A DNA stretch of 38,759 nucleotides, from contig DASZZN010000027.1 of the NCBI GenBank assembly GCA_035544955.1, forward strand, positions 1-38,759. The letters are read 5' to 3'. The stretch is from Candidatus Dormiibacterota bacterium (GTDB lineage: Bacteria; Chloroflexota; Dormibacteria; CF-121). Every line of letters begins with the position of its first letter. The first letter of the stretch is position 1. Below, in pieces: positions 7,344 to 38,759 of the stretch. The notes under the pieces are model-generated. The model made no database searches. It was not told the DNA's origin and saw only the letters and a program-made list of their open reading frames with translations. Both the position numbers and the translations under genes were made by a program.

Positions 7344-9323
7344 ATGACGATCCAATCCGGCACGCATGCCATCGAGTCGATGCAGCTGGAGGAGCGACGC
7401 TACCCGCCGCCCCCCGAATTTGCGAGGAATGCCAACGCCAAGCCGGACATCTATGCCAAGCCGTTGGAGGACTTCTGGAAGGAAGAGGCGCTGAAGCGCG
7501 TCTCCTGGTTCAAGCCGTTCGACACGGTCCTCGAGTGGAAGCTGCCTTATGCCAAGTGGTTCCTCGGCGGCAAGCTGAACGTCTGTTACAACTGCGTCGA
7601 CAGGCACGTCGAAGCCGGGCGGGGCGACAAGGTCGCCTACTACTGGGAAGGCGAGCCGGTCGACCAAAAGCGCACCATCACCTTCACAGACCTCCTGGCG
7701 GACGTCGTTCGCTTTGCCAACGCGCTCAAGAAACTCGGCGTCAGGAAGGGGACCCCGGTGGGGATCTACATGGGCATGGTGCCCGAGCTCCCGGTCGCGA
7801 TGCTCGCCTGCACCCGGCTCGGCGCCCCCCATACCGTCGTCTTCGGTGGGTTCAGCGCCGACGCGCTCGGCGGGCGGCTCAACGATATGGAGTGTGAGCT
7901 GCTGATTACCCAGAACGAGGGTCTGCGGAAGGGCAATCCGGTGCCCCTCAAGAAGAACGCCGATGCGGCGCTCGAGATGGCGCCCAAGGTCAAGAAGGCG
8001 GTCGTACTCCGCCGGACGCCGATGGACACCCCAATGAAGGACGGCCGCGACGTCTGGTGGCAGGACCTGGTCAAAGATGCCAGTGCTGACCCCGCCTCCT
8101 GTCCCTGCGAGCCGATGGACGCGGAAGACCTGCTCTACCTGCTCTACACGAGTGGGACGACCGCCAAACCCAAGGGGATTGTCCACACCACCGCCGGGTA
8201 CCTGGTGGGGACGGCGACGACCCACCACTACATCTTCGACATCAAGCCTGACTCGGTTTACTGGTGCGCCGCCGACATCGGCTGGGTCACCGGCCACAGC
8301 TATATCGTCTACGGGCCACTTTGCAACGGCACGACCGGCGTCATCTACGAGGGCGTCCCCGACTTCCCCGACAAGGATCGCTGGTGGTCGATCATCGAGC
8401 GCTATAAAATCGACATCCTCTACACGGCGCCGACCGCGATCCGCACCCACATGAAATGGGGGCCGGAGTACGCGAAGAAGCACGACCTCAGCTCGCTCCG
8501 CCTGCTGGGCTCGGTGGGTGAGCCGATCAATCCGGAGGCCTGGATCTGGTATCGGGAGAACATCGGAGGTGGCCGGACGCCGGTGGTCGACACCTGGTGG
8601 CAGACCGAGACCGGGATGATCCTGATCACGCCGCTTCCCGGAGTGACGACGCTGAAGCCCGGCTCTGCGACCAAGCCCTTCCCCACCGTCCAGGCGGCGG
8701 TCTACAACGACGCGGGTGAAGAGGTGGGACCCGGCGGCGGGGGCTACCTGGTGATCAAAGGCCCCTGGCCGGCCATGCTGCGCGGGATCTTCCGGGACCA
8801 CGAGCGCTATGTCCAGACGTACTGGAGCAAGTTCAAGGACGTTTACTTCGCCGGCGACGGGGCACGGATCGACGAGGACGGCGACTTCTGGCTGCTGGGA
8901 CGGGTGGACGACGTCATGAATGTCTCCGCCCACCGCATTTCGACGATCGAGGTGGAGAGCGCCCTGGTCAGCCACCCGAAAGTCGCCGAGGCTGCCGTCG
9001 CCGGCCGCAGCGACAAGCAGACCGGCCAGGCAATCGTTGCCTTCGTCACCCTCAAAGGCGGAGCCGAGGGCTCACCGGAGATGCTGATCGAGTTGCGCGA
9101 GCACGTGGGGAAGAAGATCGGGAAGATCGCGGCACCCGCCAACATCGTCTTCACCCCGGAGCTGCCCAAGACCCGCTCGGGCAAGATCATGCGGCGGCTG
9201 CTTCGTGACGTGGCGGAGAACCGTCCGCTCGGCGACACGACCACGCTGGCCGACCCGGCGGTCGTCAGCGAGATCGACCGGCGCGCCAAGACCGAGGCGG
9301 CCAAGGAGGAATCCTCGGCCTAA
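7344..9323 (+). CDS. acsA: Acetyl-CoA synthetase (AMP-forming)
   Basis: This 659-residue enzyme converts acetate, ATP and CoA to acetyl-CoA, AMP and PPi. The adenylate motif YTSGTTAKPKG lies in the middle. DTWWQTETGMILITPLPG is the Acs-specific A5 region, LLGRVDDVMNVSAHRISTIEVESAL is the hinge and A8 region, and PKTRSGKIMRRLLR carries the catalytic C-terminal lysine that is the known acetylation switch in this family. The Shine-Dalgarno GAAGGAGG (7324-7331) precedes the start. A 3-codon reading frame (ATG 7336, Met-Ser-Arg-stop) overlaps the start codon. It is divergent from the acetate permease, making an acetate-scavenging unit. Confidence 0.96.
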   Translation: MTIQSGTHAIESMQLEERRYPPPPEFARNANAKPDIYAKPLEDFWKEEALKRVSWFKPFDTVLEWKLPYAKWFLGGKLNVCYNCVDRHVEAGRGDKVAYYWEGEPVDQKRTITFTDLLADVVRFANALKKLGVRKGTPVGIYMGMVPELPVAMLACTRLGAPHTVVFGGFSADALGGRLNDMECELLITQNEGLRKGNPVPLKKNADAALEMAPKVKKAVVLRRTPMDTPMKDGRDVWWQDLVKDASADPASCPCEPMDAEDLLYLLYTSGTTAKPKGIVHTTAGYLVGTATTHHYIFDIKPDSVYWCAADIGWVTGHSYIVYGPLCNGTTGVIYEGVPDFPDKDRWWSIIERYKIDILYTAPTAIRTHMKWGPEYAKKHDLSSLRLLGSVGEPINPEAWIWYRENIGGGRTPVVDTWWQTETGMILITPLPGVTTLKPGSATKPFPTVQAAVYNDAGEEVGPGGGGYLVIKGPWPAMLRGIFRDHERYVQTYWSKFKDVYFAGDGARIDEDGDFWLLGRVDDVMNVSAHRISTIEVESALVSHPKVAEAAVAGRSDKQTGQAIVAFVTLKGGAEGSPEMLIELREHVGKKIGKIAAPANIVFTPELPKTRSGKIMRRLLRDVAENRPLGDTTTLADPAVVSEIDRRAKTEAAKEESSA

Positions 9324-9803: not shown

Positions 9804-9879
9804 GCCGAGGTAGCTCAGTTGGTAGAGCACATGACTGAAAATCATGGTGTCGCCAGTTCGATTCTGGCCCTCGGCACCA
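9804..9879 (+). tRNA. tRNA-Phe (anticodon GAA), CCA encoded
   Basis: The acceptor stem GCCGAGG pairs with CCTCGGC, discriminator A at 9876, with CCA at 9877-9879. The anticodon stem CATGA/TCATG encloses CTGAAAA (anticodon GAA). The T-arm is GCCAG-TTCGATT-CTGGC. A -10-like TAGAAT (9788-9793) lies 10 nt upstream. Its 3' half is duplicated at 11428-11470. Confidence 0.96.
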
Positions 9880-11427: not shown

Positions 11428-11470
11428 GAAAATCTGGTGTCGCCAGTTCGATTCTGGCCCCCGGCGCCAA
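11428..11470 (+). repeat. Displaced 3' half of tRNA-Phe
   Basis: Positions 11435-11460 are identical (26 nt) to 9845-9870 of tRNA-Phe, and GAAAATC before it matches the anticodon-loop side. The next 10 nt (CCGGCGCCAA) match the acceptor and CCA end with two changes. There is no 5' half, so it cannot be a working tRNA. The arrangement is that of a displaced attachment-site copy left by integration into the tRNA. Confidence 0.88.
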
Positions 11471-26167: not shown

Positions 26168-26240
26168 GCGGGAGTAGCTCAGTTGGTAGAGCGCAACGTT
26201 GCCAACGTTGAGGTCGCGAGTTCGAGACTCGTCTCCCGCT
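26168..26240 (+). tRNA. tRNA-Gly (anticodon GCC)
   Basis: The acceptor stem GCGGGAG pairs with CTCCCGC (discriminator T). The anticodon stem CAACG/CGTTG encloses TTGCCAA (anticodon GCC). The T-arm is GCGAG-TTCGAGA-CTCGT. CCA is not encoded. Its last 23 nt (26218-26240) recur downstream at 29387, 30347 and 35912. Confidence 0.97.
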
Positions 26241-26465
26241 AATTGATCAGCTTGAGCTGGCTTGTTGGAGCGAGTGGCTTCACGACCAAACGGTGGCCCC
26301 AACGAGTTTGAAGTTACAAGGGCTGATTTCCTCGTCGCCAGGGTCGCTATGCGGCGTCCGACATGGCGGTGGGAGGCGGCGGTCCCCAAGGGCCTCTGGC
26401 CGTGGATTATCTTCGAGTTTCACGCGGCATGTAACCTTCTGCTCCTGAAGAGCCCCTTTCCAGTA

Positions 26466-26942
26466 GTGGAGGCGCCAACCGCGGACGAGCGCACTGACAC
26501 GGTCGAGGCGCTCTATCGCACGCATGGGGATCGAATTTGGCGGGCGGTAGCTGTTTATGCCCAGGATCCTGATGTCGCGAGCGATGCGGTGGCGGAAGCA
26601 TTCGCGCAGTTAATGGTTCGGGGCGAAGCTGTTCGGTCGCCGGCTGCCTGGGTGTGGCGGACCGCCTTTCGGATCGCTGCTGGGATGCTCCAGGAGCGCA
26701 CACGATCGGTAGCCCTCGTGGGAACAGAATCCTACACGACACGTGATTCGGCCGGCGAATTGGTGGCGTCTCTGGCCAAGCTGCCGCCGAAGCAGCGTGC
26801 CGCCTTGATTCTCTTCTACTACGGCGACTACCCAATCGGTCAGATTGCCGAGATGTTGCGCTCAAACGCCCTGTCTGTTCGGGTCAACCTGAGCCGCGGA
26901 CGGCGGCGGCTGCGGCGAATCCTGGAGGAAGAGCATGCCTGA
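26466..26942 (+). CDS. ECF-type RNA polymerase sigma factor
   Basis: This protein of about 158 residues has sigma region 2 (about 13-75: VEALYRTHGDRIWRAVAVYAQDPDVASDAVAEAFAQL and SPAAWVWRTAFRIAAG) and region 4 (about 100-150: LPPKQRAALILFYYGDYPIGQIAEMLRSNALSVRVNLSRGRRRLRRIL). It would direct transcription of a small regulon, possibly its own operon. The frame is open upstream to 26262 (ATG at 26349) without family-like residues, so the GTG at 26466 was chosen. Its end overlaps the next gene by 8 nt. TGTAAC at 26430-26435 resembles an ECF -35, but no matching -10 was found. Confidence 0.88.
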   Translation: MEAPTADERTDTVEALYRTHGDRIWRAVAVYAQDPDVASDAVAEAFAQLMVRGEAVRSPAAWVWRTAFRIAAGMLQERTRSVALVGTESYTTRDSAGELVASLAKLPPKQRAALILFYYGDYPIGQIAEMLRSNALSVRVNLSRGRRRLRRILEEEHA

Positions 26943-28368
26943 GCTGAAGCAGCGGTTCGAGGAATTGGAGAGGCTGCCCGCGCCCGACCTCCAGCGGCGC
27001 ATCCAGATCCGGATTCAGCGCCTTCAGCAGCCGGACAACCCCCTGTCCGTTGCGGAACAGGCATGGCGCCGCCGCGAGCGCCTATGGCCTTCGCAGGTGT
27101 TGGCCGCGGCGGCGGTAATCGTCTTTGCCCTCGTCCTGGGGGTTGCACTGCTGCATGCGCGCAGTCGGGCGCCGGTCCAAGTCCATCCAAGTCCTTCCGT
27201 CGCCCCCCAGCCCCTTCCGAGTCCTTCGATCACCGGCACCTATCCGCGCGGCTTTTATCCGGGTTCGCTGCACATGGTGTCGCCAAACGTCGGTTGGAAC
27301 GGCGTTGCTTACGTTGAGACGAGCGATGCCGGACTTCATTGGAGGGTCATTTCATCGCCGCCGGCAATCTCGAATCAGATCAAAGGTGGGCTGGGTAACT
27401 TTGCGCTGGACACGACGCACGCTTGGATGACCGGGGCGACCAGCCACGGGCTCGTCGTGACCTCGACCGTCGACGGCGGTCATACCTGGAGCGCGAGCGC
27501 TCCGCTGCCGGCCCTCATCCAGATCAGGGGAGGAAATGCAGCGGTGCAATTGGACTTTATCGACGCGCAGCACGGCTGGCTGGTCGTAGATACCGCGGGT
27601 AGCGCTTCTCCAAATTCGCGGGCCATCTTTGCCACGAGTGACGGCGGCCGGCGCTGGAGCGAAATCGCCAGGGCCTCCGAATCCGATGGTTCCGTCCTTG
27701 GTCGGCTTGCCGCCGGCTGTACGCCGAGCGGAATAACGTTCATCAGCGCCGATTACGGGTGGTTGACCTACGACTGTACTCGCGCCAGCGGGGTTCTGTC
27801 CCCACACTCCGGTCCTGTCGCAGCGGTTACGCGCGACGGCGGTCGGAGCTGGGAGGCGGTCCCCCTCCCCTCATACCCGTCAGGGTCCGGGTACTTTTCG
27901 GCGAGTGCGCCGATCTTTACGCTGAACAACGGAATCCTTCCCGTGTTTTTCGGCGGTATCGGGCCGTCCTGGACTGGGATTTATAGAACCACCGACTCGG
28001 GCCGAACCTGGAGCTTGAGTCAGCTGCCGTTCTGGCCAGCCGCGCCCCCCGACTTCATCGACGCGCGCACGGGATGGGCCGTCAAGGAAACGGGGCCGAT
28101 CCCGCCAAGCCCGGGTGCCGACTGCTACGTCGTCACGTGTGCTTTCGTTGCCGAGTTGTACGGCACGACAGACGGTGGCGCCACGTGGAAGCTTCTCAGC
28201 CGACTGGTCCCCGCGGCCGGTGCCGTGGCGTTCTTCGATGCCAAAGTTGGCTACTACGCCTGGTCCGAAAATCCGTTCCACGAGGGATCGCCAGGCGGCA
28301 TTATGAAGACAACAGACGGCGGCCGCAGCTGGTCGGTCGTACGGCCGGTCCTGGAGGGTCAAGGGTGA
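26935..28368 (+). CDS. Membrane-anchored Asp-box (BNR/Ycf48-like) propeller protein, candidate anti-sigma sensor
   Basis: This 477-residue protein has a charged cytoplasmic segment of about 50 residues (LKQRFEELERLPAPDLQRRIQIRIQRL), one membrane helix (about 53-73, SQVLAAAAVIVFALVLGVALL), a Pro/Ser linker and an extracytoplasmic beta-propeller. Seven Asp-box motifs are visible, among them TSDAGLHWR, TVDGGHTWS, TSDGGRRWS, TRDGGRSWE, TTDSGRTWS, TTDGGATWK and TTDGGRSWS. It overlaps the sigma gene by 8 nt and the next lipoprotein gene by 4 nt. The position and topology are those of a transmembrane anti-sigma factor, but the cytoplasmic part has no anti-sigma motif I recognise. Confidence 0.85.
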   Translation: MPELKQRFEELERLPAPDLQRRIQIRIQRLQQPDNPLSVAEQAWRRRERLWPSQVLAAAAVIVFALVLGVALLHARSRAPVQVHPSPSVAPQPLPSPSITGTYPRGFYPGSLHMVSPNVGWNGVAYVETSDAGLHWRVISSPPAISNQIKGGLGNFALDTTHAWMTGATSHGLVVTSTVDGGHTWSASAPLPALIQIRGGNAAVQLDFIDAQHGWLVVDTAGSASPNSRAIFATSDGGRRWSEIARASESDGSVLGRLAAGCTPSGITFISADYGWLTYDCTRASGVLSPHSGPVAAVTRDGGRSWEAVPLPSYPSGSGYFSASAPIFTLNNGILPVFFGGIGPSWTGIYRTTDSGRTWSLSQLPFWPAAPPDFIDARTGWAVKETGPIPPSPGADCYVVTCAFVAELYGTTDGGATWKLLSRLVPAAGAVAFFDAKVGYYAWSENPFHEGSPGGIMKTTDGGRSWSVVRPVLEGQG

Positions 28369-29267
28369 AACGGATGGCACGCCTCGGCATTCTCATGATT
28401 GCGCCGCTTTGGTTGGCCGCCTGCGGCGGGACGGCCGCCCGTCCCACGGTTGCCGCGTCCCGGGCCGCCTCTGCCACCGCGGCCGCGAGCGGCCCTTATA
28501 TCTATTGGGCGAACTGGGGCGCCGGACGTGGGACCACGATCGGCCGCGCCAATCTCGACGGTACGGCGGTGAACCCGAGTTTTATCACCGGCGCCAGCAC
28601 CCCCTGCGATGTTGCGATTAACCAGTCGTATATCTACTGGGGAAACAATGGTACGAATTCGATTGGGCGCGCCAACCTCGATGGCACGGCGGTAAACCAA
28701 ACGTTTATCAGCAGTACCGGCTCGCCGTGTCCTCTCACCATTGACCGCTCTCATATCTATTGGGGGAATTGGCAGGCTCCCGTCTCCATTGGCCGAGCCA
28801 ATCTGGACGGCACTGGGGTGAATGAGAATTTCATCACCGGCATCACTGAACCCGCAGATGTCGTGGTAAACGAGACCTACATCTATTGGACCAGCCACGA
28901 TTCCTTGTCGATCGGGCGCGCGAACCTCGATGGAAGGGGCGTCAACCAGACATTCATCAAGACGGAAGCAACTCCAGATGGGATGGCAATTGACGGCTCG
29001 CACATGTATTGGACTGGCATCGACCGGGGCACAATCGGGCGGGCCAATCTTGACGGGACCGGGTTGAACCAGACCTTCATCACCGGCGCGAATGGGCCGA
29101 CTGGGATTAAAGTCGATACCGACCATATTTACTGGTCCCAGGCGGGTCCACCAAACGGACCCGCGGGGACCACCATCGGGCGAGCGAACATTGACGGCAC
29201 CGGGGTAAACCAGCGCTTCATCACCCGGGCATTTATTCCAGCTGGCCTTGCCATTCAACAACCCTAA
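28365..29267 (+). CDS. YWTD-type six-bladed beta-propeller lipoprotein
   Basis: This 300-residue protein starts at a GTG that overlaps the upstream stop (GTGA) and has a lipoprotein signal ending LAAC (C20). The mature protein is six repeats of about 40 residues with the pattern Y/H-IYW...IGRANLDGT.VN..FI, resembling LDL-receptor class B (YWTD) repeats, so a single closed six-bladed propeller is expected outside the membrane. It has no catalytic motif. As third gene of the sigma/propeller operon it may be a ligand-binding partner or a target of the sigma factor. Confidence 0.88.
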   Translation: MKRMARLGILMIAPLWLAACGGTAARPTVAASRAASATAAASGPYIYWANWGAGRGTTIGRANLDGTAVNPSFITGASTPCDVAINQSYIYWGNNGTNSIGRANLDGTAVNQTFISSTGSPCPLTIDRSHIYWGNWQAPVSIGRANLDGTGVNENFITGITEPADVVVNETYIYWTSHDSLSIGRANLDGRGVNQTFIKTEATPDGMAIDGSHMYWTGIDRGTIGRANLDGTGLNQTFITGANGPTGIKVDTDHIYWSQAGPPNGPAGTTIGRANIDGTGVNQRFITRAFIPAGLAIQQP

Positions 29268-29342
29268 TCTGTGCTGGCTGAGCAGGGGCGAGCCTGACGG
29301 CTAGTCGTTACAGCCCGCGAACCCTAAGTTTTCATCTAAGCC

Positions 29343-29373
29343 GCTGGAGGCAATACGCGCTTGCCTCCCCAGC
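29343..29373. repeat. Hairpin just upstream of the tRNA-Gly remnant
   Basis: GCTGG-AGGCAA, 7-nt loop TACGCGC, TTGCCT-CC-CCAGC: 11 pairs with a 2-nt bulge. A similar hairpin (CTGG..GAGGA / TCCTC.CCAG) lies before the remnant at 30347. Confidence 0.75.
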
Positions 29374-29383
29374 TTGCGTCCTC

Positions 29384-29410
29384 CGCGAGTTCGAGACTCG
29401 TCTCCCCGCT
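29384..29410 (+). repeat. tRNA-Gly 3'-end remnant 1
   Basis: It matches the last 26 nt of tRNA-Gly (26215-26240) with a single inserted C in the acceptor strand. The match continues past the tRNA end: the next 18 nt here agree with those after the tRNA at 16 of 18 positions (AATTG.T.AGCTTGAGCT). Confidence 0.9.
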
Positions 29411-29681
29411 AATTGTTGAGCTTGAGCTTGGTGGAGCTCCAACCACCGCCCTTCATGCCTTGACAAGTCTCGTCTGGGTTTAGCGATTGATAGCGAGTTT
29501 TTCAGGATCTATAAGTGTGGCCGAACCAGGTCCGGAACCTAAGCAGCAGGCAGTTCATCTAGTGACATCGTCGACAATTTGCTGATTCACCACAGCGCCT
29601 AGATCAGGAGCACAGTCGGCTTTTTTCATCATGGGGACTTAACATGATGGTTCGAGTAATCCAGACTCGAGGAGAGACAAC

Positions 29682-30145
29682 GTGAGCCCAAAGAAGGCCG
29701 CCCAGAAGTCGGTCCGCCGCACCACTGACAGGGCGTCCCAGTTATTGACGGCCGAGGAACGAGCCGCGATGAGGGAGACCCTCAACGAGCGGAGGCGCGC
29801 TGGCTCGGGTGAGGCGGACGGGGAAAGCGACGTACTCGGAAGATCGCCGAGATGCCGGAAGCGGATCGCGTCATGGCTAAGCGGCTCCACGCCATCATCA
29901 AAGCCAGCGCGCCTACTCTAGCTCCGAGAACCTGGTACGGGATGCCCGCGTACGCCAAGGACGGCAAGGTTGTCTGCTTCTTCCAAAGCGGGCAGAAGTT
30001 CAAAGCAAGATACGCGACCTTCGGTTTCCAACAGGCTGCAAATCTCGACGAGGGTGACATTTGGCCAACCTCCTTTGCCCTGAAAAGATTGACCCCCGCC
30101 GTCGAGAAAATGATCGGCAAGCTTGTCAAGACAGCGACGAGCTGA
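29682..30145 (+). pseudogene. DUF1801 (YdhG-like) gene with a frameshift
   Basis: Two frames together give one recognisable DUF1801-type protein. The first runs from GTG 29682 (Shine-Dalgarno GAGGAGA at 29669-29675) through LLTAEERAAMRETLNERRRA to ADGESDVL. The second continues as [48 protein letters not shown], to 30145. The change occurs near 29838, where one base appears missing between CTCG and GAAGATC. Members of this family are small, poorly understood proteins. This copy is either inactivated or carries a sequencing or assembly error. Confidence 0.82.
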
Positions 30146-30231
30146 GGCCGCGCATCACGCCGAGCGTGCCGAGGGAGGCTTGGCTGGGATGAAACCATCC
30201 GCTGACCGTCCGCTCAATTCGGCACGGACAG

Positions 30232-30288
30232 TATCCGCTTTCCATTCCAGGTTGTGCCCTGCGTGGGTTCGAGTCCACTCGCACCCGC
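30232..30288 (+). repeat. Degenerate tRNA-like 3' fragment of another tRNA type
   Basis: The T-loop-like GGGTTCGAGTCC is followed by CGCACCCGCA, an acceptor end different from tRNA-Gly(GCC). The upstream part (ATCCGCTTTCCATTCCAGG) parallels that before remnant 2. The T stem lacks one base, so it is not a working tRNA. Confidence 0.55.
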
Positions 30289-30346
30289 AGCAAACCTAGG
30301 CCGCCTGGGCGAGGATCCGCTTTCCTCTCCAGCTTGCGTCCTTCAC

Positions 30347-30369
30347 GAGTCCGAGACTCGTCTCCCGCT
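30347..30369 (+). repeat. tRNA-Gly 3'-end remnant 2
   Basis: The 23 nt match 26218-26240 with one change (T to C in the T-loop). It is preceded by the hairpin CTGG..GAGGA/TCCTC.CCAG and by AGCTTGCGTCCT, both shared with remnant 1. Confidence 0.9.
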
Positions 30370-30466
30370 GATTTCCCGCTCGAGTGCGGCCGGCTACCAA
30401 TCCACGATCCTCGGGTCGGGCGCGGAGGTAGGGACAGGCCGGTCGCTGGCCCGTCCCCTGGAATCG

Positions 30467-31636
30467 CTACGGACGCACGGCGACGCCGTGGACCGCGCAT
30501 CCTGAGCAATTGGCCGGATTGAAAACCGAAGCTGGTGCCAGATCGAGGTAGCTAACCGTTCTTTGATTGACATCGATGACCGCGATCTTGCCCGAGGCGC
30601 GAAGCGAAACAAAGGCGGTGTTCCCTTTCACGCCGATGGCATCCGGCTGGTCGTTGGCGGGACCCGGCGTTGGGTCGAGAACTAGGATGTCGGCGACGCT
30701 TACTTGTTCACCCCGAAGGTCGATCAGCACCAGCTCGTCACCGCGCGGAACGGTCCCGAAGCCCAGCTTTTCGTTAGGGCTCATGTTGAAGCTATGCCAG
30801 TCGGGCGCCGGAAGCCTACCGGCGTCTGCGAGCGTTTCGGTGTCGGTGTCGAGCCGATAGATATGGCCCCCAGTGCTTCCGCCGGCCGCAATCGTCACAG
30901 TCTTGCCGTTCTTCGACTTGATCATGCCGCACGCGATGAAGCCGTCAGTATCGAAGGTGCGCACAACGCTCATGCTGCCCACGTCGACGATCGCCAGGCC
31001 GCTGGGAAGCAACGAGACGTAGGCATGCTTGCCGTCGTCGCGATACACGCTGCAAATCGGAGCCTTCCCCAGCGACGCGAACGAGAGGGAACCGACGACA
31101 TCCCAGCGTTGGGTGGCCAGGTTCGCGGCGACCTTGAAGAGGGTTTTGGAGCCAATCTGCGCCACGAGCAGGACCGAACCGTCCGGTGAGGATTTCGCCT
31201 GGTGGGTCCCTACTTGTCCCAGGTGCAGGACATCGACGAGCTGTCGGCTGTCAGCCTGGACGATGTCGAGGTCGCCGTTGCCCATCCCGGAGATGTAGGC
31301 AAAGGCGCCCTGGGGCGAGAAGGTCGTGATGTGCGGACCGGTCCCGGCCGGAAGGTTGATCGTCTCCATTGGCCCTCGGCCGTCCTGGCCGTGAAGGATA
31401 TCGATGCGACTGGTTGCCTGGAGTGTGATCCAGACCTCGCCGCTCTCCGATAGGACAGTTGGTGTTTGGGCTGGCCGGACTACGGTCGCCGCCTGCTTCA
31501 CTGACGCCGGCCCCTCCGCCGGCGTAGTCGCCGACACTGGAGTCCCACACGCGGCTAGGCTGGCGAGCAAGGTCAGGCTAACAAGCGGCCAAAAGGTCGA
31601 GCGACATGATCGCGGAAGCGGCATCATGATCCTCAT
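30467..31636 (-). CDS. YVTN-type beta-propeller lipoprotein
   Basis: This 389-residue protein has a lipoprotein signal ending SLAAC (C30). The mature part has repeats of the YVTN/cytochrome-d1-like propeller type: [95 protein letters not shown] and [26 protein letters not shown]. It ends with [14 protein letters not shown], which is not a canonical CxxCH heme site. The ATG at 31636 has a strong GGAGG upstream; the longer open frame was rejected. It is divergent from the LuxR-NHL regulator, which could control it. Confidence 0.86.
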
Positions 31637-31718
31637 GTCTTTCCTCCGTCGGGGTTTTCCGGCTCGCCGCCACCGTAGGGGGAAAACGGCCGCCACGCAT
31701 CCGCAGAAATACAGGCTC

Positions 31719-31752
31719 CGGTACCCATTTCGGTACCCAATTCCCATCGGGA
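31719..31752. promoter_or_regulatory. Tandem repeat and inverted repeat between the divergent propeller genes
   Basis: Two adjacent 12-nt units (CGGTACCCATTT and CGGTACCCAATT, 31719-31742), each with a GGTACC palindrome, are followed by TCCC-ATC-GGGA (31742-31752). They lie in the 131-nt space between the YVTN lipoprotein and the LuxR-NHL gene and are candidates for a regulator-binding region. Confidence 0.55.
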
Positions 31753-31767
31753 CCTGAGGAGAACGGA

Positions 31768-33183
31768 GTGCCGGCCAGGCAGGAGTCCACGCTGACACCT
31801 CGCGAGCGGGAGGTCGCCGCTCTCGTAGCCGACGGGCTGACGAACCGCCAGATAGCCAGGCGCCTCTTCATTTCGGAGCGGACGGCCGAGCACCACGTTG
31901 AGCAGATCCGAAGCAAGCTCGGCTTCCATTCCCGGGCTCAGGTTGCCGCATGGGTCGTGGGATCGCCGGCGCCTCTCGCGCCCGCCCCAACGGCCGCGGC
32001 GTCTGTGCCAGTCGATGCCTCGTCGAGCCGAGAGTCCACTGCAACTGGAAAGGCCCCTCGATCGCGCTGGGTGACCGCCGTCCCGGTCGCCATGTTGGTG
32101 GCTGCCGGCGCTGCGGCCTTCGCCTTCTGGGCGTCGCGGCAGGGAGGGTCAGCCATGACCATCGTCACGGTGGCCGGCACCGGTCGATCGACGTTCTCGG
32201 CGGACGGCCGGCCCGCAACAGCGACGGATCTCGTCCGCCCGGCGGCGATGGCGGTTGCTCCGAACGGCACGCTCTACTTCATCGACGGCAATCGAGTCAG
32301 GAAGATCACTGGACGAGACACGGTGCAGACCATTGCGGGCACGGGTGATTCCGGGGATGGCGGTGATGGGGGGCCAGCCCTGTCGGCTCAACTCAACTCG
32401 CCAAAAGCGCTGGCCATCGATCCCGACGGAGATGTTTTCATCGCGGATACCGGGAACAATCGGGTTCGTGAGGTTGATCCCAAGGGGAAAATCTTCACGG
32501 TAGCCGGCACAGGCGATGCCGGCTATTCCGGTGATGGCGAACGAGCGGTCCGGGCTCGCCTGAACGCCCCGACGGGACTGGCCGTCGGCTTTAGTGGCAG
32601 CGTATTTATCGCCGACACGCTGAATCATCGTGTGCGAATGGTCACGAGCGAGGGCGTGATCAGCACGGTGGCGGGAACCGGAACCGCCGCGTATACGTTC
32701 GAAGGTGGTCCCGCCACCGCGGCACCCCTCGACTTACCTGAGGCACTTGCCTTCGACAGCGAAGGGTATCTCTACATCGAGGACGTTGGCAACGATCGGG
32801 TGCGGAAGGTCGATCTCGCCGGCGAGATCGTCACCGTCGCCGGAACTGGTGTTCCGGGCTCTTCCGGCGACGGTCAATCGGCTTCAGCCGCTGAGCTGAG
32901 TCTGACGAGCCAAGGGTTGGGAAGTGGTCAGGCGCTGGCCGTTGATAGCCAGGGCAACCTTTATATAGCGGATGCCGGCAACGAGAGGATTCGCGAGGTC
33001 GATCTTCGCGGCACAATTTCGAGCCTGGCGGGGACCGGTCGCGCGGGGTACTCGGCGGACGGTAGCGCGCCGCTGCAGGCAACGCTTAACGATCCTCTCA
33101 GTGTGGCGGTTGACGCCCAGGGAGTCGTGTACATCGCCGACAGCGAGAACAATTTGATCCGGGAGATTGCTCCCAAACGCTAG
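31768..33183 (+). CDS. LuxR-type HTH / transmembrane / NHL six-bladed propeller regulator
   Basis: This 471-residue protein has a GerE/LuxR DNA-binding domain at the N-terminus (about 8-64: [43 protein letters not shown]). A Pro/Ala/Ser linker, one membrane helix (about 102-122, [21 protein letters not shown]) and six NHL repeats (about 133-471, pattern AGTG..GYSGDG...A.L..P..LAVD..G..YIAD..N.RVR.V) follow. The layout suggests a one-component membrane regulator that senses outside and binds DNA inside, in the manner of ToxR/CadC but with different domains. The start is GTG with TGAGGAGA 6 nt upstream. The stop overlaps the convergent neighbour's stop (CTAG). Confidence 0.9.
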
Positions 33184-33950
33184 GGTGACTGATCCACGGG
33201 CGTCTCGAAGGGCTGGCCTGCAGCGGTGACATGAAATGCAAGGAAGGTAGACCGGCCGCTGGCTAGGTTGAAAATCTGTGTCGCCGTCCCGGGCAGCTCG
33301 CTTGCCCCGTGGTCGGCGGCAAGCGTGACCGCCGATTTCCCGGCTGCCCGTACCCGGATCGATCCTTCCAGGACAAAGAGGGCCACGATGCCGCCGTATT
33401 TTGCCGCGCCCGTTCGTCCGCCCGGCTCCAGAGCGACCCATCGTAGGGTTTCGATGTACGGACTGGGTGAGAACGTGGTCAGAGGAAAGTCCAGCGTTTC
33501 GTACGGAACAATGGCGCTCGAGGAGACGAGCGGTGACGACCGAGCGCTCGTCGGCCACAGCGCCACGAAGTACCAGTGGTTCTCCGCCAGTCCCGGGTTG
33601 GTATGTGTGTGCGCCAGCGGACCGAGAAAGAAACCCTGCGCCGGTCCAATGTTTACGGTCGGGCCATCCTGGATGGCGAGCACCTGGCTGCCCTCCGCCT
33701 GAAAGATGAGACCTGGCACGTGCTTGAGCGAGGGAAAGAAGCTGCCAGCCGGCTGATGGAATTCGATTGCGCGGATGAACAAGTTGCCGGTCGGCAAGGC
33801 CGGTAGCGGACCGCCAGCAAGGGGTACAGTCTTGGATCCCTGGGCCTTCGCATCCTGGCTCATCGAGGTCGAGGCGGCCGCGCTGCATGCCGTGGATAGC
33901 AGGGCAAGGACGCAAGCGATCCAAAACCGCCGCCCCGGGCACCCTCCCAT
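33180..33950 (-). CDS. Cupin-like lipoprotein
   Basis: This 256-residue protein has the lipoprotein signal [14 protein letters not shown] (C22). The mature part shows two cupin-like beta regions: [26 protein letters not shown], with a His-rich strand that could hold a metal, and [36 protein letters not shown]. The cupin reading is from pattern only. The ATG at 33950 was chosen for the signal peptide; the upstream open frame to 34220 is Arg/Pro-rich and not protein-like. It is convergent with the NHL regulator, and the two stop codons share CTAG. Confidence 0.75.
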
Positions 33951-34066
33951 CCTCGAAGGGTAGGCTAAACCGGTCCCAGACCTGGCCTGCCCTGGGAGAC
34001 TTCGATGTCTGCGAGCCGGTATCCGAAGCGAACCTGGCCCGTCTGAGTGGGCATTGCGCGGGAAAC

Positions 34067-34079
34067 CTCGTCTCCCGCT
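34067..34079 (+). repeat. Short tRNA-Gly 3'-end match (possible remnant 3)
   Basis: 13 nt are identical to the last 13 nt of tRNA-Gly(GCC). The T-arm before it is not preserved, so it could be an eroded remnant or chance. Confidence 0.4.
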
Positions 34080-34394
34080 CTCTCGTGCATAACTCTTCGA
34101 ACGCCGCCGCGGCGGTGGAGGTAAACGTGGGGATGCCTCCATCCCACGGGCCATCCCGGTGCTGGAGGGCGAGTAACCGTGCGCCCCAGCCCTCAGTGGC
34201 AACGCGGGCACGCCTGGCACAGCCGGGCTGGCCTACGCCACATCTGCCATCTGGTAGCTGAACCGAATTGGTAGGGCGTCGGTGGAACGCCTCCTGGCGT
34301 AGACGCTGGTCTCTTTGGCGCAGTCTGTTTGGCGGGCCTCGTTGAGCGCAGCGGTAGGCAGGCACCGCCCGAGTTCCTCTCCGGCGTATCCGCA

Positions 34395-34423
34395 TTGACG
34401 GAGGGCCGCCCGCCCGTTAGTCT
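34395..34423 (+). promoter_or_regulatory. Promoter of the secreted Asp-box gene
   Basis: TTGACG (34395-34400), a 17-nt spacer and TAGTCT (34418-34423) precede the GTG at 34433 by 9 nt. The expected +1 falls at or within a few bases of the start codon. Confidence 0.65.
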
Positions 34424-34432
34424 TCTTCGCGG

Positions 34433-35899
34433 GTGAGGGGAACAACGACGAGGTCGCTGACGCTCGTGACAGCGAGCGTGATCATGATGGCTTCCCTGGC
34501 GCCAGGGGCAGGCATCGCTGCTTTGGCCAGCGACCAGGGGAGCGTGCGCTTCAGCCTCCAGCACCGGGTCGGTTTCGTCTCCGGCGACGACTGGGAACCG
34601 GCCATCGCAGCCGACCGGTTTGGCCATGAGTACGTCCTGTACAAGCACTACGACGTCCCGGGCGGCGGCACCTGCCCCGCCTGCGATGTCCACCTCCTTG
34701 TACAGCGCAGCAGCAATGGTGGGCGTAGCTGGACCGTGCCCAGGGCCATTGCCCCAGTAGCCGTTGACGGTGGGCAGTACGATCCGCAGATCGCGGTCGA
34801 CCCCGTGGACGGCCGCACCGTGTGGGCCTCCTTCCTGCAGAACGCCAACTCCGTGATCGGCGTGGTCGAATCCACCGACTTCGGCGAGACCTGGTCCCCC
34901 GTTCGGATCGTAAGTGATGGCCTCATCGGGCTGGACAAGGACTCGCTCGTGGTCCGCGGCCGGACCGTGGCGGTGGCGTACGACGACGGCTTCAGCACCT
35001 ACGCGTCAATCTCGCAAGACGGCGGTCGGCAGTGGACTACCCGCCTGGTTACGCCCGGCAGCAACCGCTTCAACCTGCCGTTGTCGGCAGGCGGCGGAAT
35101 CGATTCCAAGGGCAATCTGTATTTTGCCTGGAACAGCTTTGACGCAGCCCATTCGGCTAACGGGGACGGACCGGTTACGCTCTGGCTCACCCGCTCCAGC
35201 GACGAGGGAAAAACCTGGCAACGAGTCGTGATCGCTGTCAGTGGCGCTCCCCCGCCCTGCAGTGGTTGCGGCTTCGCCTATCTAAGTGCGCAGATGACCA
35301 TGAGGATCGGGCCCGACGACGCAGTCTATCTCCTCTGGAATGGAACGGTCGACCGCACGGACTTTGCACCCGAGCGCATCTTTTTCAGCCGCTCGGTTGA
35401 TCACGGCCGAACCTTCTCATCGCGCCGCGAGGTGTCCACTGCTCCGGCTGGGGCAGAACATGCTTTTCCGGCGATCACCGTCGGCGATCGAGCGGGCGAC
35501 GTACGGTTGGCCTGGATGGACACGCCGCAGGTGGCTGCGGACGGAACCGGCACCTGGAACGTTCGTTACCGGGCCACTGAAGATAATGGGCAGACGCTGG
35601 GGCCGGAGGTACGCATCTCCCGATTCGTGCCTGGCTATCCTTATCTCACGCCAGCCGGGTTCACGTCGCCATACGGCGACTACTTTCAGATGGCGATTGA
35701 TGCAAACGACGCCACCGTGCTGGCGTTTGGCGAAGGCCCGAACTACGCGGGGCCGGGCAACATCTGGGTCTCGCATGAGCTTCAGACCGGCGAACCGGAC
35801 ATAGCCGCCGGGGGCCCGGATGAAAGCTCCGCGGCGACCTGGCAGCGCGCGCTCCACGGAACTACTGAGCGGACGCATGCAGGTGTCGGCGACCGCTAG
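34433..35899 (+). CDS. Secreted Asp-box (BNR/sialidase-fold) protein
   Basis: This 488-residue protein has a signal peptide (1-33, LTLVTASVIMMASLAPGAGIAALAS). Its mature part is a sialidase-fold propeller with repeated Asp boxes: SSNGGRSWT, STDFGETWS, SQDGGRQWT, SSDEGKTWQ, SVDHGRTFS and a weak TEDNGQTLG. Two cysteine pairs (CPAC, CSGC) may form disulfides. I do not see enough of the sialidase arginine triad to call an enzyme; exo-alpha-sialidase annotation would be over-reach. The last ~30 residues look unstructured. The stop lies 12 nt before the distal tRNA-Gly copy. Confidence 0.85.
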   Translation: MRGTTTRSLTLVTASVIMMASLAPGAGIAALASDQGSVRFSLQHRVGFVSGDDWEPAIAADRFGHEYVLYKHYDVPGGGTCPACDVHLLVQRSSNGGRSWTVPRAIAPVAVDGGQYDPQIAVDPVDGRTVWASFLQNANSVIGVVESTDFGETWSPVRIVSDGLIGLDKDSLVVRGRTVAVAYDDGFSTYASISQDGGRQWTTRLVTPGSNRFNLPLSAGGGIDSKGNLYFAWNSFDAAHSANGDGPVTLWLTRSSDEGKTWQRVVIAVSGAPPPCSGCGFAYLSAQMTMRIGPDDAVYLLWNGTVDRTDFAPERIFFSRSVDHGRTFSSRREVSTAPAGAEHAFPAITVGDRAGDVRLAWMDTPQVAADGTGTWNVRYRATEDNGQTLGPEVRISRFVPGYPYLTPAGFTSPYGDYFQMAIDANDATVLAFGEGPNYAGPGNIWVSHELQTGEPDIAAGGPDESSAATWQRALHGTTERTHAGVGDR

Positions 35900-35911
35900 C
35901 TACTCTACGGA

Positions 35912-35934
35912 GAGTTCGAGACTCGTCTCCCGCT
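35912..35934 (+). repeat. tRNA-Gly 3'-end copy (distal boundary)
   Basis: A perfect 23-nt copy of 26218-26240, 9.69 kb from the tRNA. It abuts the promoter of the UvrA-like gene. It is the best candidate for the original tRNA end displaced by integration. Confidence 0.93.
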
Positions 35935-35955: not shown

Positions 35956-38274
<2,319 letters not shown>

Positions 38275-38317
38275 TGGCTTGTACGCACGGCTTGTAAAGC
38301 ATATGAGCGGGCTAACC

Positions 38318-38346
38318 TTGCTCGTCTACCCCATCGGCGGTACGCT
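38318..38346 (+). promoter_or_regulatory. Candidate promoter of the DHFR-like gene
   Basis: TTGCTC (38318-38323), a 17-nt spacer and TACGCT (38341-38346) lie 6 nt before the ATG at 38353. Confidence 0.5.
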
Positions 38347-38352
38347 TGCGCA

Positions 38353-38759
<407 letters not shown>

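What the first reader, a model, noticed from the sequence alone, without database searches (positions are those of the whole stretch)
29343..30369. Two tandem cassettes with shared ends but different cargo
Segments 26241-29410 and 29411-30369 both begin with nearly the same 18 nt (AATTG.T.AGCTTGAGCT). Both end with a hairpin, then CCAGCTTGCGTCCT, then the tRNA-Gly 3' core. One carries a sigma/propeller operon, the other a DUF1801 gene. Common ends with exchangeable cargo and no recombinase recall integron cassettes, but with a tRNA 3' end as recombination core and a hairpin beside it. I know of no named system with this layout.
Basis: partly seen in the sequence, partly recalled or inferred. 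Interest (0 to 1): 0.8.

Follow-up and report, generated by a model that had tools for sequence, protein, structure and literature searches.

The report
Stacked gene islands at a tRNA
At a glycine tRNA gene, several short foreign DNA segments have been inserted one after another, each leaving a copy of the tRNA's tail; this is a known way for bacteria to collect genes, and here it recurs at nine or more tRNA genes of one uncultured bacterium, with the inserting enzymes mostly lost.

Summary
Downstream of tRNA-Gly(GCC) (26168-26240) lie three copies of its 3' end (29385, 30345, 35910), so there are at least three stacked segments. Segments 1 and 2 share a left end (17/21) and a right end (35/47), both beyond chance, and carry different genes. 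In seven related species homology runs through the upstream gene and the tRNA and, in six, stops exactly at the tRNA's last base. The same stacking occurs at eight further tRNA genes of this genome and in relatives. This is serial site-specific integration at a tRNA 3' end with the recombinase gene lost: an additive island, or cis-mobilizable-element-like array. It is not an integron-like system. Relatives carry large serine recombinases, intact or decayed, running into the same tRNA-Gly; this genome has an intact one at tRNA-Gly(CCC). Known kind; the extent and the nearly recombinase-free state are of moderate interest. Excision and mobility are not shown.

The parts
26168..26240 (+). tRNA-Gly(GCC), the insertion target; left boundary (attL) of the array
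   Evidence: ARAGORN and Rfam; in six relatives, homology through the upstream M23 gene and the tRNA stops at 26240
26241..26261 (+). left end of segment 1, AATTGATCAGCTTGAGCTGGC
   Evidence: 17/21 to the left end of segment 2; related end after tRNA-Gly(GCC) in G013 and tRNA-Gly(TCC) in G004
26262..26942 (+). segment 1 cargo: sigma-70-like factor
   Evidence: PF08281 4e-12; 77% nt identical to a gene in the tRNA-Ser(GGA) array of the same genome
26935..28368 (+). segment 1 cargo: membrane protein with BNR/YCF48-like propeller
   Evidence: PF14870, PF02012
28365..29267 (+). segment 1 cargo: LDLR-b / Vgb-like propeller lipoprotein
   Evidence: PF00058 2e-17
29336..29384 (+). right end of segment 1: hairpin, then CCAGCTTGCGTCCT
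   Evidence: 35/47 to the right end of segment 2; fold z -2.3
29385..29410 (+). copy 1 of the tRNA-Gly 3' end (junction of segments 1 and 2)
   Evidence: 22/25
29411..29431 (+). left end of segment 2, AATTGTTGAGCTTGAGCTTGG
29682..30145 (+). segment 2 cargo: DUF1801 gene, frameshifted near 29840 (open part 29852-30145)
   Evidence: PF08818 21.3 bits; 71-79% nt identity to genes in relatives; the same gene lies just downstream of tRNA-Gly(GCC) in G003, G007 and G016
30220..30290 (+). degenerate extra right end followed by a non-Gly tRNA-like T-arm
   Evidence: 30/41 to the right end of segment 2; best tRNA match weak (Leu-TAG 20/26)
30296..30344 (+). right end of segment 2, CCAGCTTGCGTCCT; hairpin weak
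30345..30369 (+). copy 2 of the tRNA-Gly 3' end
   Evidence: 23/25
30370..30402 (+). left end of segment 3, GATTTCCCGCTCGAGTGCGG...
   Evidence: 53 nt at 89% with a junction in the tRNA-Gly(GCC) array of another genus, G015
30467..35899 (.). segment 3 cargo: lactonase-like propeller (-), LuxR-NHL protein (+), unknown (-), BNR protein (+)
   Evidence: Pfam
35910..35934 (+). copy 3 of the tRNA-Gly 3' end, right boundary of segment 3
   Evidence: 24/25; 36 nt at 97% with the G015 junction
35956..38759 (+). possible further segment: UvrA-like ABC protein and RibD_C gene (from 38353); contig ends, array border not reached
   Evidence: no close copy of the UvrA-like gene in its genus, 74% in G026; 38338-38759 is 90% identical to DNA beyond the last repeat of a tRNA-Gly array in G022

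Best explanation
This is an additive genomic island: several elements integrated one after another at the 3' end of tRNA-Gly(GCC) by site-specific recombination. Each arriving element carries its own version of the tRNA 3' end in its attachment site, restores the gene, and leaves a copy at its far border. The left and right ends shared by segments 1 and 2 are the two halves of the same attachment site, so both elements came in with the same or a closely related recombinase. The gene for that recombinase has since been lost, leaving att-bounded cargo (cis-mobilizable-element-like). The best candidate for the enzyme is a large serine recombinase of the kind whose gene runs antisense into tRNA-Gly in relatives and at tRNA-Gly(CCC) in this genome. 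Shown: repeats, shared ends, site conservation in relatives, absence of a recombinase, intact and decayed recombinases at the same site in relatives. Inferred: which recombinase, and that the segments could still be moved in trans or together with a neighbour.
For: Copies of the tRNA 3' end lie downstream of 9 tRNA genes in this genome at 21-25/25, against at most 18/25 on the control strand; some arrays hold two or three. Homology with G001, G003, G007, G010, G011 and G015 runs through the M23 gene and the tRNA and stops at 26240; in G013 it continues through the left end. Chromosomal backbone shared between pairs of relatives begins 0.5 to 9 kb after this tRNA. Segment 3's two ends recur in another genus with different cargo. 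Large serine recombinases: three in this genome, each directly downstream of a tRNA (Gly-CCC, Gln-CTG, Asp-GTC), antisense, with the stop codon inside the tRNA; intact at tRNA-Gly(GCC) in G015 and G025; decayed in G001 and reduced to a C-terminal tail in G003 and G007. A same-genus element sharing the window's left end holds a serine-recombinase remnant (L244, E 5e-7). In the same genome, integrase-less tRNA-Cys elements share the direct repeat TGACGGCAAnnGTGACGGCAA with tRNA-Ser(TGA) copies on contig 38, where a broken tyrosine integrase starts right after a copy.
Against: No recombinase remnant was found inside the window's own segments. The window's exact right end was not found with an intact recombinase anywhere. 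The genome's intact serine-recombinase element (L092) has only a loosely similar right end. The far border of the array is not in the contig, so no clean empty site could be shown for this species. The DUF1801 gene lies next to this tRNA in three other species, so it could be an old resident rather than imported cargo.
Confidence: 0.86

Rival explanations
1. The elements were placed by a tyrosine integrase rather than a serine recombinase.
For: Tyrosine integrases sit 0.1-0.3 kb after tRNA-Gly in class relatives G020, G031, G032, G040 and in G015; L244, which shares the window's left end, also has the TGACGGC direct repeat seen beside tyrosine integrases.
Against: The copies at tyrosine-type sites inspected here start at or before the anticodon stem, whereas the window's start in the T-arm, as does that of the intact serine-recombinase element L092. 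At tRNA-Gly(GCC) itself, relatives in the family have serine recombinases or their tails. Some junctions next to serine recombinases (G020, G036) start earlier, so this criterion is not clean.
Confidence: 0.3
2. A true trans-acting cassette system: recombinase-less cassettes are routinely excised and inserted by one or a few resident recombinases, functionally like an integron with a tRNA as attI.
For: Nearly all segments delimited by tRNA 3' copies in this genome carry no intact recombinase gene; segments share ends but not cargo; similar cargo recurs in arrays at other tRNAs (77% identical sigma gene) and in another family (90% identical RibD_C gene).
Against: Decayed recombinases in several arrays show that loss from ordinary self-mobile islands is enough to explain the pattern. 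The ends are diverged and of several types. The specific end model finds only two copies.
Confidence: 0.13
3. Segmental duplication of the tRNA-Gly region followed by decay and unrelated gene insertion, without site-specific recombination.
For: The repeats are short and near one tRNA gene.
Against: Only the 3' end is copied, at nine different tRNA genes and in many species, with flanking ends that recur in other genera.
Confidence: 0.02
4. Integron or integron-like array with tRNA-derived attC.
For: Cargo in tandem with similar ends.
Against: No integron integrase: the only tyrosine recombinases in the genome are a Xer-like one, one phage-type and one broken. The repeats are tRNA 3' ends in direct orientation, and the hairpin is not conserved.
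Confidence: 0.02

Closest known systems
Dehalococcoides ssrA genomic islands (PMC3146451)
   Same: Tandem islands bounded by direct repeats of an RNA gene's 3' end; insertion in the T-loop; a short conserved motif just before each repeat; serine-recombinase gene carrying the attachment site (dsiB); many islands without an integration module, called possible cis-mobilizable elements.
   Different: Target there is tmRNA at one locus; here nine or more tRNA genes. The integration module is missing from the window's segments. Cargo is sigma/propeller, DUF1801 and similar, not dehalogenases.
Cis-mobilizable elements (CIMEs) and tandem accretion of ICEs/IMEs (PMC5704250)
   Same: att-bounded, no recombination genes, stacked at a tRNA 3' end.
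   Different: No functional ICE/IME partner seen next to them; descent from one is not shown for these segments.
Additive flexible genomic islands with tRNA targets (Alteromonas PMC4119200; Methylophilaceae tRNA-Lys repeats PMC10872708)
   Same: A conserved tRNA collects cassettes; repeats of the tRNA's last bases; size varies between strains or species.
   Different: Small segments (0.4-9 kb), many tRNAs in one genome, uncultured lineage related to soil Chloroflexi MAGs.
Tycheposons (as described in PMC10872708)
   Same: tRNA-bordered cargo islands.
   Different: Tycheposons carry a tyrosine recombinase and are 4-200 kb; these segments carry none.
Integrons
   Same: Tandem cassettes with shared ends.
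   Different: No IntI, no attC; core is a tRNA 3' end.

Membership tests
tRNA-targeted tandem (additive) genomic islands | Direct repeats of the tRNA 3' end delimit each segment | tested here: met
   Three copies downstream of tRNA-Gly(GCC); control at most 17/25
tRNA-targeted tandem (additive) genomic islands | Upstream side conserved, downstream content variable between relatives | tested here: met
   Homology ends at 26240 in six relatives; backbone resumes 0.5-9 kb on, between pairs of relatives
tRNA-targeted tandem (additive) genomic islands | Empty site without insertion in a relative | tested here: inconclusive
   Contig ends inside the variable region; G006 has at most 0.5 kb between tRNA and shared backbone
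Cis-mobilizable element (CIME) | Retains functional attL and attR | tested here: inconclusive
   Repeats and shared ends present; function not testable
Cis-mobilizable element (CIME) | Lacks integration genes | tested here: met
   No tyrosine or serine recombinase or remnant in the segments
Cis-mobilizable element (CIME) | Lacks transfer genes | tested here: met
   Pfam on the main ORFs shows none; small ORFs not scanned
Cis-mobilizable element (CIME) | Derived by deletion from an ICE or IME | tested here: inconclusive
   Decayed recombinases at the same tRNA in relatives, none in the window
Cis-mobilizable element (CIME) | Can be moved together with an adjacent functional element | not testable with these tools
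   No active partner in the contig; needs experiment
Integron | Integron integrase gene | tested here: not met
   PF00589 search of the genome: Xer-like, one phage-type, one broken
Integron | attC sites with conserved secondary structure | tested here: not met
   Hairpin not conserved in copy 2; end model finds only two copies
Tycheposon | Encodes its own tyrosine recombinase | tested here: not met
   None in the segments
ssrA-GI type (serine recombinase, DsiB/CcrB-like) | Serine recombinase gene at the left end carrying the attachment site | tested here: not met
   Absent from the window's segments, though present at tRNA-Gly(CCC) of this genome and at tRNA-Gly(GCC) of relatives

The most novel reading that the evidence does not exclude
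In this lineage tRNA 3' ends work as genome-wide capture sites for small recombinase-less cassettes that a few resident recombinases keep exchanging in trans between tRNA genes and species, a functional counterpart of the integron without an integron integrase.
Probability: 0.13. Interest if true: 0.7.

Novelty: new member of a known kind. Interest (0 to 1): 0.38.

Why it matters
It shows a nearly recombinase-free genome in which at least nine tRNA genes collect foreign genes, with recombinases of two unrelated classes (large serine and tyrosine) at different tRNAs, and with intact, decayed and missing recombinase stages visible at the same tRNA-Gly site across species. That makes the decay from self-mobile island to bare cassette traceable. 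If bare cassettes are still moved in trans, it would be an integron-like route of gene capture.

Tried and rejected
Exact pattern CCAGCTTGCGTCCT in the own genome: two exact hits only, and near-matches no more frequent than the backward control. Left-end pattern in 84,980 species: one related soil MAG (VBHQ01000003, both junctions) and one chance cyanobacterial hit. Covariance model of the right end: no further copies. Integron reading rejected. Conserved C-terminal codons of a recombinase in the window's left ends: reading frames are open but there is no similarity beyond the antisense tRNA itself, so not claimed. A tRNA-Leu origin for the extra end at 30220-30290 is not supported (20/26). 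A TGGTTCC-type motif before the T-arm in other Gly right ends of this genome is suggestive, but the pattern was tuned by eye and its backward control gave 3 hits against 5.

Full report
Observation. The window is contig 27, complete, of an unnamed 3.67 Mb genome. tRNA-Gly(GCC) ends at 26240. Its last 25 bases recur at 29385 (22/25), 30345 (23/25) and 35910 (24/25); the best chance match on the opposite strand is 17/25. Segments 1 and 2 share the first 21 bases at 17 positions and the 47 bases before the core at 35; in 300,000 random pairs from the window these values were reached once and never. Segment 3 has different ends. The hairpin is good in copy 1 and no better than shuffled in copy 2.

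Cargo. Segment 1 carries a sigma factor and two propeller proteins. Segment 2 carries a DUF1801 gene with a frameshift. Segment 3 carries propeller and LuxR-NHL proteins. No tyrosine or serine recombinase or remnant was found in them.

Site test. In G001, G003, G007, G010, G011 and G015 the upstream peptidase gene and the tRNA are conserved (73-93%), and homology with the window stops at the last base of the tRNA. In G013 it continues through the left end of segment 1; there the tRNA is followed by the same kind of left end, 2.2 kb of other cargo (an NAD-binding protein), a degraded tRNA 3' end and the same left end again. Among same-genus species, backbone shared between pairs starts 0.5 to 9 kb after the tRNA, while the window reaches 12.5 kb without meeting it. 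In G015, another genus, a junction has the right and left ends of segment 3 at 97% and 89% with otherwise unrelated cargo. This is the pattern of repeated site-specific insertion.

Genome-wide. Scanning 20 kb (or to the contig end) downstream of about 49 tRNA genes found 3'-end copies at nine: Phe, Gly-GCC (3), Lys-TTT (2), Gly-TCC, Cys (3), Gly-CCC, SeC, Pro-GGG (weak) and Ser-GGA (2). Contig 38 adds two copies of the Ser-TGA 3' half. Copies at Lys, Cys, SeC and Ser start at or before the anticodon arm, those at Gly in the T-arm. The integrase-less Cys elements carry direct repeats TGACGGCAAnnGTGACGGCAA, which also precede both Ser-TGA copies on contig 38, one of them directly before a broken tyrosine integrase, and follow tRNA-Ser(TGA) itself. 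The pattern occurs 10 times in 1.3 Mb against none in the reversed control; 8 of the 10 are at such ends, in elements with them, or beside an integrase. A tyrosine-integrase remnant also sits at the start of the second Cys element.

Recombinase for the Gly arrays. The genome has three large serine recombinases, each beside a tRNA (Gly-CCC, Gln-CTG, Asp-GTC), antisense to it, with the stop codon within the tRNA. The Gly-CCC one lies in an element that ends in a T-arm-type copy 5.2 kb away. At tRNA-Gly(GCC), G015 and G025 have intact serine recombinases in the same geometry; G001 has a broken one; G003 and G007 have only the C-terminal tail. A same-genus element with the window's left end holds a remnant. 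I therefore favour a serine recombinase. Tyrosine integrases also occur after tRNA-Gly in the class, and this part stays inferential.

The covariance model of hairpin + motif + core gave 104 and 94 bits for the two copies and at most 32 bits elsewhere in 61 genomes; those inspected are tRNA-Gly genes or plain 3'-end copies, apart from one coding-region match. The specific end is thus not a general signature. The tRNA-end array is.

Comparison. Dehalococcoides, in Chloroflexota, has the same architecture at tmRNA: tandem islands, T-loop insertion, a 15-base motif before each repeat, a serine recombinase holding the attachment site, and 15 islands without the module that the authors suggest may be cis-mobilizable elements (PMC3146451). 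IME reviews describe decay to CIMEs and tandem accretion (PMC5704250). Additive islands at tRNAs are known in Alteromonas (PMC4119200) and with repeated tRNA-Lys ends in Methylophilaceae (PMC10872708). So the kind is known. New here is only the host lineage, the number of tRNA genes used in one genome, and the visible series from intact to missing recombinase.

Limits. No cultured strain, no reads, no empty site for this species; mobility is not shown. The comparisons rest on draft genomes with many contigs.

Noticed in passing
window 11445-11469: A copy of the tRNA-Phe 3' end (23/25) lies 1.57 kb downstream of tRNA-Phe (9804-9879): another one-segment island in the window.
   Followed up: partly
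L192 (contig 38) 15699, 9022, 7814-8967, minus strand: Two tRNA-Ser(TGA) 3'-half copies, each preceded by near-identical long arrays of TGACGGCAA / GGCGAACGTT repeats, the second directly before a broken tyrosine integrase; no tRNA gene on the contig part read.
   Followed up: partly
L266, L258, L276: All three large serine recombinases of the genome end inside a tRNA gene on the opposite strand, so their C-terminal tail is antisense tRNA.
   Followed up: partly
L109 (contig 49), tRNA-Ser(GGA) array: Sigma factor plus membrane propeller operon paralogous to that of segment 1 (77% nt identity over the sigma gene) in an array at a different tRNA.
   Followed up: partly
window 38338-38759: RibD_C (dihydrofolate reductase-like) gene 90% identical at DNA level to one lying just beyond the last repeat of a four-copy tRNA-Gly(TCC) array in another family (G022, L202).
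   Followed up: partly
L202 (G022) tRNA-Gly(TCC) array: Four stacked 3' ends; the left ends also contain a second partial copy of the tRNA anticodon stem (such as CTTTCCAAGCTGGATGTCG).
   Followed up: no
L098, tRNA-SeC: A selenocysteine tRNA bounds an 8.6 kb segment with a full 3'-half repeat.
   Followed up: no
window 35956-38274: UvrA-like ABC protein with no close homologue in its genus (best 48%) but 74% in G026 of another family: probably horizontally acquired.
   Followed up: no
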